64,000 bases of DNA from Spirochaeta lutea (GTDB taxonomy: Bacteria; Spirochaetota; Spirochaetia; DSM-27196; Salinispiraceae). Shown in pieces: positions 2,672-28,012 of the stretch (position 1 is the first letter of the stretch; every line of letters begins with the position of its first letter). The DNA lies in the NCBI RefSeq assembly GCF_000758165.1, contig NZ_JNUP01000045.1, forward strand, positions 1 to 64,000. Reading direction: 5' to 3'. The position numbers and the translations under genes are program-made. The notes under the pieces are model-generated. The model was not told where the DNA came from, did no database searches, and saw nothing but the letters and a program-made list of their open reading frames with translations.

Positions 2672-2744
2672 CTCCCCCGGACAGACTCGAACTGCCGACC
2701 TAGTGGTTAACAGCCACCCGCTCTACCGACTGAGCTACAGGGGA
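2672..2744 (-). tRNA. tRNA-Asn (GTT anticodon)
   Basis: A 73-nt cloverleaf on the minus strand. The acceptor arm TCCCCTG pairs with CGGGGGA with one G-T pair; the D arm contains GCTCAGTCGGTAGAGC; the anticodon loop CTGTTAAC has GTT at its centre; the T arm contains GTTCGAGTC. The CCA end is not encoded. It has its own promoter and terminator, so it is a single-gene unit. It sits next to the presumed cassette region, but no duplicated tRNA end that would mark an integration site was seen. Confidence 0.95.
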
Positions 2745-8887: not shown

Positions 8888-9754
8888 TCACAGACGCCCG
8901 GGGTTCTCCGATTGGTATGCCCGGGGATCCCGGCGTTGCCGCACAGCCTCGTAGAGCATGAGGGTGGCAGCCTGGGCAACGTTGAGACTGTTTACTCGGC
9001 CCAACATAGGAATGGTGATGAGCTCATCGGCCTCCTGCTTCCAGAAATCCGAGAGACCTTCTTTCTCTGCCCCCACCACAATGGCGCTGGGACCGGAAAG
9101 GTCGGTGTCCCAGTAACCTGTTCGGGCCTCCGGTACGGCGGCAAACACCCGTATCCCATGGGTTCGGCAGAAGCTTAGGGTTTCTCGGTTCGATGCCTCT
9201 GCTGAGGGTATCTGAAACAGGCAGCCCTTACTGGAGCGTACCACGTTGGGGTTCAATAGGTCCGTTCTGCCTTGGGCGGAAATCAGTCCATGGCCGCCGG
9301 CAGCATCGATACTGCGGAGTATGGCGCCGAGATTGCCGGGTTTTTCCAAATCCTCGGCAATAATGAGCAGGGCCGGTTGGCTCCTGGGCAGAGCCAGGCC
9401 CTGGAGTTCCAAGGACGGTGCCCTAGCAAGGCAGAGCCATGCATCGGGATGGTCGCGGTAACTTGCCTTCTTCATTGCCTCGGGAGAAAGATGTACAACC
9501 TCGGCTTGCCCCTGTTCTACCAGCCCCAGGAGATGCTGTTCCGCTGCATAGTCGGGATTTTGGGGTGATTTTAAGAGCTGCGGACAGATGAAGACCGTGT
9601 GGGCTTCCAGGCCGGAGGCCCAAGCCAGGGCTAATTCGCTGAGGCCCTCTACCAGCATGAGGCCTGCCTGGCGCCGGCGGCGATGATTCTGCAACCGGAT
9701 GAGCTCCTTAATCCGGGGATTACCGGGACTCTGGATGTACAAGGGCTGTTTCAT
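8888..9754 (-). CDS. TrmH/SpoU-family RNA 2'-O-methyltransferase
   Basis: A 288-residue SPOUT-fold enzyme that transfers a methyl group from SAM to a ribose 2'-OH in rRNA or tRNA. The N-terminal ~100 residues form the substrate-binding domain seen in RlmB/TsnR types (RIKELIRLQNHRRRR). The knot-forming catalytic half shows motif 1 EKPGNLGAILRS, motif 2 VVGAEKEGLS and motif 3 IPMLGRVNSLNVAQAATLM. The modified RNA cannot be deduced. It is transcribed away from an RluA-type pseudouridine synthase across a 45-bp gap, pairing two RNA-modification genes. The ATG sits 6 nt after a TATAGA box with no ribosome-binding site, so a leaderless message is predicted. Confidence 0.9.
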   Translation of the reverse strand: MKQPLYIQSPGNPRIKELIRLQNHRRRRQAGLMLVEGLSELALAWASGLEAHTVFICPQLLKSPQNPDYAAEQHLLGLVEQGQAEVVHLSPEAMKKASYRDHPDAWLCLARAPSLELQGLALPRSQPALLIIAEDLEKPGNLGAILRSIDAAGGHGLISAQGRTDLLNPNVVRSSKGCLFQIPSAEASNRETLSFCRTHGIRVFAAVPEARTGYWDTDLSGPSAIVVGAEKEGLSDFWKQEADELITIPMLGRVNSLNVAQAATLMLYEAVRQRRDPRAYQSENPGRL

Positions 9755-9760
9755 GCTCCA

Positions 9761-9792
9761 TCTATACCATGTTCCCAGGGCTCTGGTATAGT
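9761..9792. promoter_or_regulatory. Symmetric divergent promoter with inverted repeat
   Basis: CTATACCA (9762-9769) and TGGTATAG (9784-9791) form a perfect 8-bp inverted repeat. Each arm contains a -10 hexamer pointing outward: TATAGA on the minus strand, 6 nt before the methyltransferase ATG, and TATAGT on the plus strand, 7 nt before the pseudouridine-synthase ATG. Clear -35 boxes are not seen. Confidence 0.5.
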
Positions 9793-9799
9793 AATTGTC

Positions 9800-10867
9800 A
9801 TGTTCTACGTGTTGGAGCCCCTGGAAACCGTCGGTTCACGTCTGGATGAGGTACTGTCCCACCGGTTACCGGGGCTGTCAAAGAGGCAGGCAGGCAGGTT
9901 GTGCCAGCGGGGTATGGTCAGGAATGAATCCTCCGGCCTCGGGAAATCCGGAACCGTACTGTCCAAAGGCAGCAGGATTACATCCCCCACCCGGATCTGG
10001 ATTGATCTGGAGAAGGCCGGGATTGATGACCGGGGATTTCCGGTTCTGACGGCCCGCCCGCCCCTCCCGAAGGAAGATATTCCGATCTGGATGGATACTC
10101 ACCTCGTCAGCGTAAATAAACCCCGGGGGCTGGCCTGCCATGCAAATCACCCAGGACAACAGAATACCCTCATTAACCGAATACTCTCCCTGATTCCCGA
10201 GCATCCCCGAGCAGGCTGGCCGGTGCCCCTGGAGGCAGGACTGCTCAACAGGATAGACACCTATACCAGCGGGCTGGTTCTCCTGGCCCGGGATCCCCGG
10301 GAATTCCCGGTCCTTGCCAGGGCTGTGAGAACCGAGAGCCGCAAGAAATACTTGCTGTTGGTCTGCGGTTGCCCGGAATGGGATTCCCTGGGGTGCTCAG
10401 CCCCGATACACACCCCGGGAGGGAAACGGGTACGGGTCGTGCCGGATTGTACCGCCGACGGGGTATCCGAGGATGGACCCCCTGCAGGTTCGAAACGCCC
10501 GGAAGCAGCCGGCGGCAAACGATCCGCACAAACGGAATTCCGGGTGCTCGCCCGTAATACCGCCCGAAGCATCGCCCTGGTTTCCGCTGAACTCAGCAGG
10601 GGCCAGATGCATCAGGTTCGGGCGCATGCAGCATTCCTGGGCTATCCCTTGGTCGGAGACGGGTTATACGGAGGGCGGACCGATCTTACCTGGGATCATG
10701 GGGGGGAAACGAAACCGGTGATCCGCCACATCCTCCACGCCAGGTCGGTCCGCTTGAGGATTCCCGAATTCTACCCGGAAGAACTGGAGCTGACCGCTGA
10801 GATACCCGGCTACTTCCGCAAACTCTTGGCTACCTATTTTCCCGATGTCCCAGACCTCAACGCTTAG
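9800..10867 (+). CDS. RluA-family pseudouridine synthase
   Basis: A 355-residue RNA pseudouridine synthase. The N-terminal S4-like RNA-binding segment is GSRLDEVLSHRLPGLSKRQA. The catalytic motif reads NRIDTYTSGLVLLARD; the Asp is the nucleophile and Asn replaces the His of the usual HRLD form. The distal GQMHQVRAHAAFLGYPLVGD and KPVIRHILHARSVR segments fit RluA/RluC/RluD types. A Gly/Ser-rich insertion (GVSEDGPPAGSKRPEAAGG) precedes the final strand region. The start at 9800 is preferred over an upstream frame overlapping the divergent methyltransferase, because TATAGT lies 7 nt before this ATG. The target uridine is unknown. Confidence 0.88.
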   Translation: MFYVLEPLETVGSRLDEVLSHRLPGLSKRQAGRLCQRGMVRNESSGLGKSGTVLSKGSRITSPTRIWIDLEKAGIDDRGFPVLTARPPLPKEDIPIWMDTHLVSVNKPRGLACHANHPGQQNTLINRILSLIPEHPRAGWPVPLEAGLLNRIDTYTSGLVLLARDPREFPVLARAVRTESRKKYLLLVCGCPEWDSLGCSAPIHTPGGKRVRVVPDCTADGVSEDGPPAGSKRPEAAGGKRSAQTEFRVLARNTARSIALVSAELSRGQMHQVRAHAAFLGYPLVGDGLYGGRTDLTWDHGGETKPVIRHILHARSVRLRIPEFYPEELELTAEIPGYFRKLLATYFPDVPDLNA

Positions 10868-10868
10868 A

Positions 10869-10973
10869 TAGTGCACAAAAGAATGTAAACTACGCCAGAT
10901 ATAGGGGAACAACCAGAACACCAACCCAGGGGTGGTGTCCCCCGGGTAAAAAAGTACAATCTTTTGCGCACTA
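10869..10973 (+). repeat. 105-bp inverted-repeat element, copy A
   Basis: The termini TAGTGCACAAAAGAATGTA and TACAATCTTTTGCGCACTA are imperfect inverted repeats. An inner hairpin pairs ACACCA with TGGTGT around CCC-A-GGG, and the centre carries CCAGATATAG. The same element, 105 bp with no gaps, occurs on the opposite strand at 27896-28000; by hand about three quarters of positions agree. It begins 2 nt after the pseudouridine-synthase stop and ends 9 bp before the permease stop, between convergent genes. No coding capacity. Probably a MITE-like non-autonomous element, or a repeated structured RNA. Confidence 0.8.
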
Positions 10974-10981
10974 CCCAAGGC

Positions 10982-11770
10982 CTAGGATTCAAACCCTAGG
11001 CGTTTTTCGAGGGTCCTGCTGATCACCGAGATGGGAAGGGTCAGCAGCAGATACCCCACGGCCAGGGGAATGTAGCTCTCCAGGGTTGCAAAGGTGCTGG
11101 CATTCACCTCCCTGGCAGCCATGGTGAACTCCCGGATTGAGATAACTGATAGAAGACTCGAATCCTTGATGAGGCTTGCAAGCTGGCCAGCCAGAGCGGG
11201 GAGTATTCGGGTGATGACCTGGGGGGCAATGATGTAGCGGTAGATTTGGAACCGGGTCAAACCGATGCTCCGGGCTGATTCGATCTGACTTCTGCCGATG
11301 CTGTTGATCCCACCCCGGATGATCTCCGCCATGTAGGCCCCGGAGAAGAGGCTCATAATTAGAATTCCCAGGGTATACCGCTCTGAGATGCCGAAGGCGC
11401 TGGCAATGAGGTAGTAAAAAACCAGGATCTGTACCAGTAGGGGGGTGCCCCGGATTACCTCCACGTACACCTTCGCCAGGGCGCGGAGCAGAATAATCCG
11501 GCTGGACTGCATAAGCCCGAATACAATGCCGATGACCAGGCTGAGAATCAGGCTCACGCTGGACATGACCATGGTCATACCGAAGCCCTGGATAAAATTG
11601 AGGCGGTACCGCCAAATACTATCCCAATGGAACTGGTAGGCAAATCCTGAGAGGGCGAAGGTCATGACCAGAGCGATGGCTCCGAGCACCGCCAGGGTAT
11701 TGAGGAACCAGGCCGCTGGACTGACGGTTTCACCATCCTCGGGAAGGATCAGGAGTTCACGATATGCCAT
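10982..11770 (-). CDS. Polar amino acid ABC transporter permease
   Basis: A 262-residue inner-membrane permease of the HisM/GlnP family. An N-terminal hydrophobic segment near residue 30 is followed by the five-helix permease core. The conserved EAA-loop that contacts the ATPase is visible as IESARSIGLTRFQIYRYI, and the entry motif VIRGTPLLVQ is typical of amino-acid permeases. It lies 11 nt downstream of its binding-protein gene. No ATP-binding subunit follows; the next feature is the 105-bp repeat, so the ATPase must be encoded elsewhere. Confidence 0.92.
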   Translation of the reverse strand: MAYRELLILPEDGETVSPAAWFLNTLAVLGAIALVMTFALSGFAYQFHWDSIWRYRLNFIQGFGMTMVMSSVSLILSLVIGIVFGLMQSSRIILLRALAKVYVEVIRGTPLLVQILVFYYLIASAFGISERYTLGILIMSLFSGAYMAEIIRGGINSIGRSQIESARSIGLTRFQIYRYIIAPQVITRILPALAGQLASLIKDSSLLSVISIREFTMAAREVNASTFATLESYIPLAVGYLLLTLPISVISRTLEKRLGFES

Positions 11771-27884: not shown

Positions 27885-28012
27885 TTCAACATACATAGTT
27901 CGCAAAAGGTTGTAACATTACATCCCGGCAACACCACCCATGGGTGGACTTACTGGCTACTCCACTATATCTGGTGTCGTTTACAACCTTTTGCGCACTG
28001 CATTCAACATAC
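27885..28012 (-). repeat. 105-bp inverted-repeat element, copy B, with 10-bp flanking direct repeats
   Basis: The core at 27896-28000 aligns without gaps to copy A (10869-10973) when read on the minus strand. Its terminal arms pair CAGTGCGCAAAAGGTTGTAA with the complement of TTACAACCTTTTGCGAACTA. The inner palindrome CCACCCATGGGTGG and the central CCAGATATAG are kept. TTCAACATAC occurs exactly at 27885-27894 and again at 28003-28012, immediately around the element, as expected for a target-site duplication. It occupies the 333-bp gap between the HD-GYP and femX genes; no gene was seen there. Confidence 0.8.

What the first reader, a model, noticed from the sequence alone, without database searches (positions are those of the whole stretch)
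10869..10973. Two-copy 105-bp palindromic element with covarying stems and a target-site duplication
The intergenic sequence at 10869-10973 and the reverse complement of 27896-28000 align without gaps over 105 bp (about 78 of 105 positions identical by hand). Both have ~19-bp terminal inverted repeats, an inner hairpin and an invariant CCAGATATAG core. Some changes are compensatory: the outer stem reads CAAAAGA/TCTTTTG in one copy and CAAAAGG/CCTTTTG in the other, on both arms. Copy B is bracketed by the perfect direct repeat TTCAACATAC. This fits a MITE mobilised in trans, or a mobile structured RNA. I know no named family with these ends.
Basis: seen in the sequence. Interest (0 to 1): 0.78.

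Follow-up and report, generated by a model that had tools for sequence, protein, structure and literature searches.

The report
Abundant MITE in a spirochaete genome
The two palindromic repeats are copies of a short non-autonomous transposon, present in roughly 200 copies in this spirochaete genome and most likely moved by an IS1-like transposase whose long element sits in the same genome; it is a new family of a familiar kind of jumping DNA, unusual mainly for its copy number and for an internal motif kept across related genera.

Summary
Window 10867-10975 (+) and 27894-28002 (-) are two copies of a 109-bp element with about 20-bp inverted ends (TAGTGCGCAAAAGGTTGTAA). The target duplication is exactly 9 bp (17 of 119 sampled copies perfect, 39 with at most one mismatch), at nAAnnnTTn sites. 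About 190 copies are estimated in the 3.5-Mb genome.

The likely driver is in the same genome: a long element with the same tip lies at about 20 contig breaks, and one copy, joined across a break, has a perfect 9-bp duplication. Its C-terminal peptide leads to intact IS1-like transposases in Salinispira pacifica, where 1,403-bp elements and 137-150-bp MITEs share ends. So: a MITE mobilised in trans.

However, an internal block (CCAGATATRGYGG), not found in the IS copies tested, is shared by MITEs of related genera with diverged ends; its role is open.

Novelty: new family of a known kind. Interest about 0.4.

The parts
10867..10975 (+). MITE copy A, 109 bp, in the gap between two convergent ORFs; its first base is the last base of the stop codon TAG of the ORF 9683-10867
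   Evidence: CM match 101 bits, model 1-109; alignment; sequence
10858..10866 (.). left target duplication of copy A (CAACGCTTA), decayed
   Evidence: 7 of 9 against 10976-10984
10976..10984 (.). right target duplication of copy A (CAAGGCCTA), decayed
27894..28002 (-). MITE copy B, 109 bp, between two ORFs on the minus strand
   Evidence: CM match 119 bits, model 1-109; sequence
27885..27893 (.). left target duplication of copy B (TTCAACATA)
   Evidence: perfect 9 of 9
28003..28011 (.). right target duplication of copy B (TTCAACATA)
   Evidence: perfect 9 of 9
10869..10888 (+). left terminal inverted repeat of copy A (20 bp)
   Evidence: columns 3-22 of A3; 95% mean conservation of columns 3-24
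10954..10973 (+). right terminal inverted repeat of copy A (20 bp)
   Evidence: columns 88-107 of A3; 94% mean conservation
10892..10907 (+). conserved internal block of copy A (TACGCCAGATATAGGG-type, columns 26-41)
   Evidence: 88% mean conservation; homologous block in S. pacifica and G003 MITEs
27962..27977 (-). conserved internal block of copy B (ACACCAGATATAGTGG, columns 26-41)

Best explanation
It is a MITE family: 109-bp non-autonomous DNA transposons with inverted ends TRTAGTGCGCAAAAGGTTGTAA. They are inserted through cuts staggered by 9 bp, which duplicate 9 bp at nAAnnnTTn targets, by the DDE-type transposase of a long IS1-like element present in several copies in the same genome (ends TAGTGCGCAAAASCCTGTAACTTTTT). 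Shown: element borders, TSD length, target preference, copy number, the shared end tip and TSD length of the long element, and the matching MITE/IS pair in S. pacifica. Inferred: that this transposase acts on the MITE ends, and that the long element of this genome carries an intact gene (its interior lies in contigs that read N here). The conserved internal block is most likely an accessory site that helps the MITE transpose or persist; that step is a guess.
For: Flank agreement is 60-73% over exactly nine positions and near chance outside; 17 of 119 TSDs perfect; 17 observed against 0.47 for re-paired flanks in 50 copies. Target consensus. 347 tip hits against 12 control, about 194 copies. 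Long element: ends A and B at about 20 contig ends, perfect 9-bp TSD AAATCGTTA joining C46 and C68, same first 12 bases as the MITE. Its C-terminal peptide matches intact ORFs in S. pacifica at 39-45% identity. S. pacifica: 1,403-bp elements with 9-bp TSDs and about 30 MITEs with the same ends. IS1 InsA-like N-terminus, hhalign 93%, IS1 model touched by 25 of 27 relatives below cut-off. Placement mostly intergenic and enriched in convergent gaps.
Against: The interior of the long element in this genome could not be read, so an intact transposase there is not shown. MITE and IS ends diverge after base 12 (GGTTGTAA against SCCTGTAA). No empty site or strain polymorphism was seen. The catalytic half of the transposase does not align significantly with InsB, so its DDE chemistry rests on motifs only.
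Confidence: 0.88

Rival explanations
1. A mobile structured RNA: the element encodes a transcribed RNA whose fold (outer stem plus inner hairpins on the CCAGATATAG strand) is under selection, and transposition is only how it spread.
For: Internal block kept across related genera and not found in the IS copies tested. G-U changes outnumber A-C changes in the two innermost helices, 39 to 17, against 34 to 32 in the TIR stem. S. pacifica interiors fold somewhat better than shuffles, mean z -1.2.
Against: No two-sided changes beyond column shuffles (7 pairs against 5.4, 121 of 500 shuffles reach it). Interior z -0.49 equals the flank control -0.48. RNAalifold finds no consensus fold in S. pacifica cores. 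No strand bias beside genes, 22 to 17. No Rfam match. In S. pacifica both strands fold equally well.
Confidence: 0.06
2. A domesticated or relict MITE: it spread long ago by another transposase and the coresident IS merely shares a similar tip; the copies no longer move.
For: Copies are diverged, median pairwise identity 74%, and 17 of 119 TSDs are still perfect. MITE and IS ends differ after base 12.
Against: The first 12 bases, the two outer bases and the 9-bp TSD agree. Some copies are up to 96% identical. A chimera of a MITE right half and IS end A exists (contig C63, L067). In S. pacifica the MITE and IS ends match over about 17 bases.
Confidence: 0.05
3. An ordinary regulatory or terminator palindrome (REP-like or bidirectional terminator) kept for host use at gene ends.
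For: Enrichment in convergent gaps, 35 of 92 against 22% of intergenic length.
Against: Exact 9-bp target duplications show transposition; no terminator-like or promoter-like site in the one copy scanned; copies also overlap ORF ends.
Confidence: 0.01

Closest known systems
MITEAba12 of Acinetobacter (PMC6382973)
   Same: 111-114-bp MITE with terminal inverted repeats that match a coresident IS, 9-bp TSDs, no orientation preference, variable centre (read)
   Different: 16-bp TIRs; driven by ISAba12; at most 22 copies per genome against about 190 here; no target motif was found there, nAAnnnTTn here; no sequence comparison was made
Correia elements (CREE/NEMIS) of Neisseria (from memory)
   Same: About 100-150-bp intergenic MITE with long TIRs and a very high copy number
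   Different: TA target duplication and an unrelated sequence as I recall; not tested here
IS1 family (driver)
   Same: InsA-like zinc-binding and HTH N-terminus (hhalign 93%), TDxxxxY and basic R-rich motifs, 9-bp TSD
   Different: Single 376-398-aa ORF, 1.3-1.4 kb; far below the curated IS1 cut-off (22 of 100 bits); InsB half not significantly matched
REP/BIME elements with RAYT (from memory)
   Same: Palindromic, intergenic, high copy number, mobilised in trans
   Different: REPs are 20-40 bp (PMC3733652 abstract); TIRs with a 9-bp TSD, as here, are not a REP feature as I know it

Membership tests
MITE | Short element (under about 600 bp) with terminal inverted repeats | tested here: met
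   109 bp, about 20-bp TIRs at 94-95% conservation
MITE | No coding capacity of its own | tested here: met
   109 bp cannot hold a transposase; copies vary in length 106-111 bp without regard to frame
MITE | Target-site duplication of fixed length | tested here: met
   Exactly 9 bp; 17 of 119 perfect, 39 with at most one mismatch
MITE | Many dispersed copies | tested here: met
   About 194 copies
MITE | Autonomous relative with matching ends and TSD | tested here: met
   Long element with the same 12-base tip and a 9-bp TSD in the same genome; complete pair in S. pacifica; intact gene in this genome not seen
MITE | Mobilisation in trans shown directly | not testable with these tools
   Needs an assay or strain polymorphism
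IS1 family (driver) | Score over the curated IS1 transposase model | tested here: not met
   22 bits against a cut-off of 100
IS1 family (driver) | InsA-like N-terminal zinc-binding/HTH domain | tested here: met
   hhalign probability 93%, E 3.6e-7
IS1 family (driver) | IS1-type catalytic domain | tested here: inconclusive
   Conserved D127, D220 and mostly D/E263, but no significant match to InsB
Structured RNA family | Covariation above controls | tested here: not met
Structured RNA family | Match to a known family | tested here: not met
   Rfam scans
Structured RNA family | Discrete transcript | not testable with these tools
   No expression data held

The most novel reading that the evidence does not exclude
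The conserved internal block (CCAGATATRGYGG followed by CCRCYATCGG-like sequence) is a functional module carried by the MITEs but not by their driver IS, kept across related spirochaete genera while the ends diverged: either an RNA that benefits the element or host, or an internal transposase-binding enhancer that makes the MITE a better substrate than the IS itself.
Probability: 0.25. Interest if true: 0.65.

Novelty: new member of a known kind. Interest (0 to 1): 0.4.

Why it matters
It is a large bacterial MITE expansion (about one copy per 18 kb) in a group for which my paper searches found no described MITE family, with its likely driver in the same genome and a complete MITE/IS pair in a sequenced type strain (S. 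pacifica), so the driver hypothesis is directly testable. The internal block, shared across genera but not found in the IS copies tested, bears on an open question: why some MITEs outnumber their autonomous relatives and what their interiors are for. Many contigs of this assembly also end inside the long element, which matters to anyone using it.

Tried and rejected
RNA reading: Rfam scan of the window and of five S. pacifica MITE loci, nothing relevant; covariation, folding and parsimony tests negative or marginal. PF01609 transposase as driver: one IS5-like fragment without these TIRs around it. IS256-type transposase beside a decayed IS end: judged an unrelated neighbour. Exact TIR-pair pattern over the GTDB genome collection: none, but the own genome and near ones may be left out. 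Transposase relatives in viral contigs and solved structures: nothing relevant. Named-genome search for the transposase: one MAG fragment. Empty sites within the genome: only self-matches. Promoter or terminator role: no site in the one copy scanned. Mutual information between columns mostly reflected subfamilies.

Full report
OBSERVATION. The two stretches match as described and fold well because of the inverted ends. The window belongs to a 3.53-Mb draft genome of 69 contigs, here G000. A search for the tip TAGTNCGCAAAAG gave 168 + 179 hits against 12 for the reversed control. From sampled stretches (and earlier loci) 119 full-length and about 30 partial copies were recovered. Corrected for the 80% of ends the pattern catches, for the control and for the long element's ends, the genome holds about 194 copies. 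The sampled stretches were partly chosen around known copies, so densities within them are biased; the genome-wide tip count is not.

BORDERS AND TARGET. Comparing left and right flanks position by position, agreement is 60-73% over exactly nine positions and 19-33% outside them. Perfect duplications: 17 of 119; at most one mismatch: 39 of 119. In the first 50 copies, re-pairing flanks at random gave 0.47 comparable repeats on average against 17 observed. The target is nAAnnnTTn. Copy B has a perfect TSD, TTCAACATA; copy A one of 7 in 9.

LONG ELEMENT IN THE SAME GENOME. About 20 contigs end in one of two sequences that begin with the same tip: end A, TAGTGCGCAAAAGCCTGTAACTTTTT..., and end B, TAGTGCGCAAAACCCTGTAACTTTTT.... 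The 9 bp beside end A on contig C46 (AAATCGTTA) are the reverse complement of the 9 bp beside end B on contig C68 (TAACGATTT). That is a perfect 9-bp TSD and shows A and B to be the two ends of one element; a second pair matches 8 of 9. The interior lies in contigs that read N, so an intact gene was not seen. End A encodes a C-terminal peptide...GLSRERLTAIIRELWGRRPFRGKLSLWTEELRTWNMKWRNPGVDFGTYVPKYISA.

DRIVER FAMILY. That peptide matches complete open frames in a same-family genome, G002, whose contig length, 3,782,798 bp, is exactly that published for Salinispira pacifica L21-RPul-D2 (PMC4511686). The 398-aa version there (called 405 aa as an open frame) sits in 1,403-bp elements with ends AGTGCACCAAAGCTTGT; two have perfect 9-bp TSDs, TAATTCTTT and AATTGCAAA. 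Relatives of the 376-aa version are widespread in the class (54 of 248 genomes). They share zinc-ligand cysteines, DGFE and TDxHxxY motifs and a basic NYxDRxxRKD block. The N-terminal half matches IS1 InsA (hhalign 93%). The catalytic half does not match InsB significantly, the curated IS1 model is missed by a wide margin, and no Pfam family covers the proteins. I therefore call it IS1-like and do not file it as IS1.

PARALLEL MITES. S. pacifica carries about 30 MITEs of 137-150 bp with the ends of its 1,403-bp element. A covariance model built from this genome's copies finds 11 matches in G003 and 7 in S. pacifica, none in G001, and none in 37 genomes of other families of the order (several matches are the two strands of one element). 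A blastn search with the consensus finds none outside G000, so shared orthologous insertions are not the explanation.

INTERIOR. Over 79 gapless copies, mean conservation is 94-95% in the TIRs, 88% in columns 26-41 (ACACCAGATATAGCGG) and 58% in columns 42-55. A profile of 22 S. pacifica interiors, applied to the interiors of this genome without TIRs, exceeds the 99th percentile of dinucleotide shuffles in 72% of copies, and in one orientation (mean 4.8 bits forward, 1.1 reverse, 0.04 shuffled). Some G003 copies show the same block, for example CCCCAGATACAGTGGGGG. The block was not found in the S. pacifica IS copies or in the two IS ends of this genome that were tested. So these MITEs do not look like simple internal deletions of the elements seen, and the block has been kept while the ends changed.

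RNA TEST. For a structure of outer stem plus three inner helices, two-sided changes occur at 7 pairs against 5.4 in column shuffles (121 of 500 shuffles reach it); only one outer-stem pair has any. RNAalifold predicts nothing for the S. pacifica cores. Interior folding z is -0.49 on the core strand against -0.48 for flanks; S. pacifica interiors do better (-1.2) but on both strands alike. A parsimony count gives 39 G-U against 17 A-C changes in the two innermost helices and 34 against 32 in the TIR stem; this is suggestive but was made on a structure picked from the same data. Beside co-directional genes there is no strand preference, 22 sense to 17 antisense. The RNA reading is therefore not excluded, but it is not supported.

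PLACEMENT. Of 116 located copies, 92 lie between predicted ORFs and 18 overlap one, mostly at its end. Convergent gaps hold 35 of the 92 although they make up 22% of intergenic length. ORFs were called mechanically by length, so this is approximate. It fits selection against insertions in genes and promoters.

KNOWN RELATIVES. MITEAba12 (PMC6382973) is the nearest described analogue in size, TSD and mechanism. My searches found no MITE described for these spirochaetes, but the paper library is partial and ISfinder could not be searched.

VERDICT. A real, abundant MITE family with a likely driver identified; ordinary in kind, notable for its copy number and for the internal block kept across genera.

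Noticed in passing
L083, L092, L097 (contigs C7, C16, C23): Three small contigs end in the same repeat, CTTAACCTGCGGAGCGAAAGTGGCGCGGTTTTTGCCAAGAA, which resembles an integron attC site; possibly a cassette array broken in assembly.
   Followed up: partly
L072 (contig C46:417-3507): A truncated IS256-type (Transposase_mut) gene lies beside a decayed copy of IS end A.
   Followed up: partly
L067:1449-1599 (contig C63): A 151-bp chimera joins the right half of a MITE to about 90 bp of IS end A, with TIRs at both ends.
   Followed up: partly
L028:2529-2633 (contig C25): A diverged 105-bp copy with the same ends but a changed interior (CCCTAGTTGTAGCG); a possible separate subfamily.
   Followed up: no
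L055:1629 and L054:2841 (contigs C64, C49): TIR-bearing variants whose interior is longer or degenerate, with extra hairpin sequence.
   Followed up: no
L180, L189, L194, L198 and G002:C1:3067292-3067439 (S. pacifica): A second IS1-like element with ends GCCCCAAACAATGTGGAA in four nearly identical copies without an obvious TSD, and a 148-bp pair of similar ends that may be its own MITE.
   Followed up: partly
L226 (JAAAOB010000005.1): A fragment 96% identical to the S. pacifica 376-aa transposase sits in a MAG labelled Bacteroidetes from GSL; either recent transfer or mis-binning.
   Followed up: no
window 2672-2744: tRNA gene on the minus strand.
   Followed up: no
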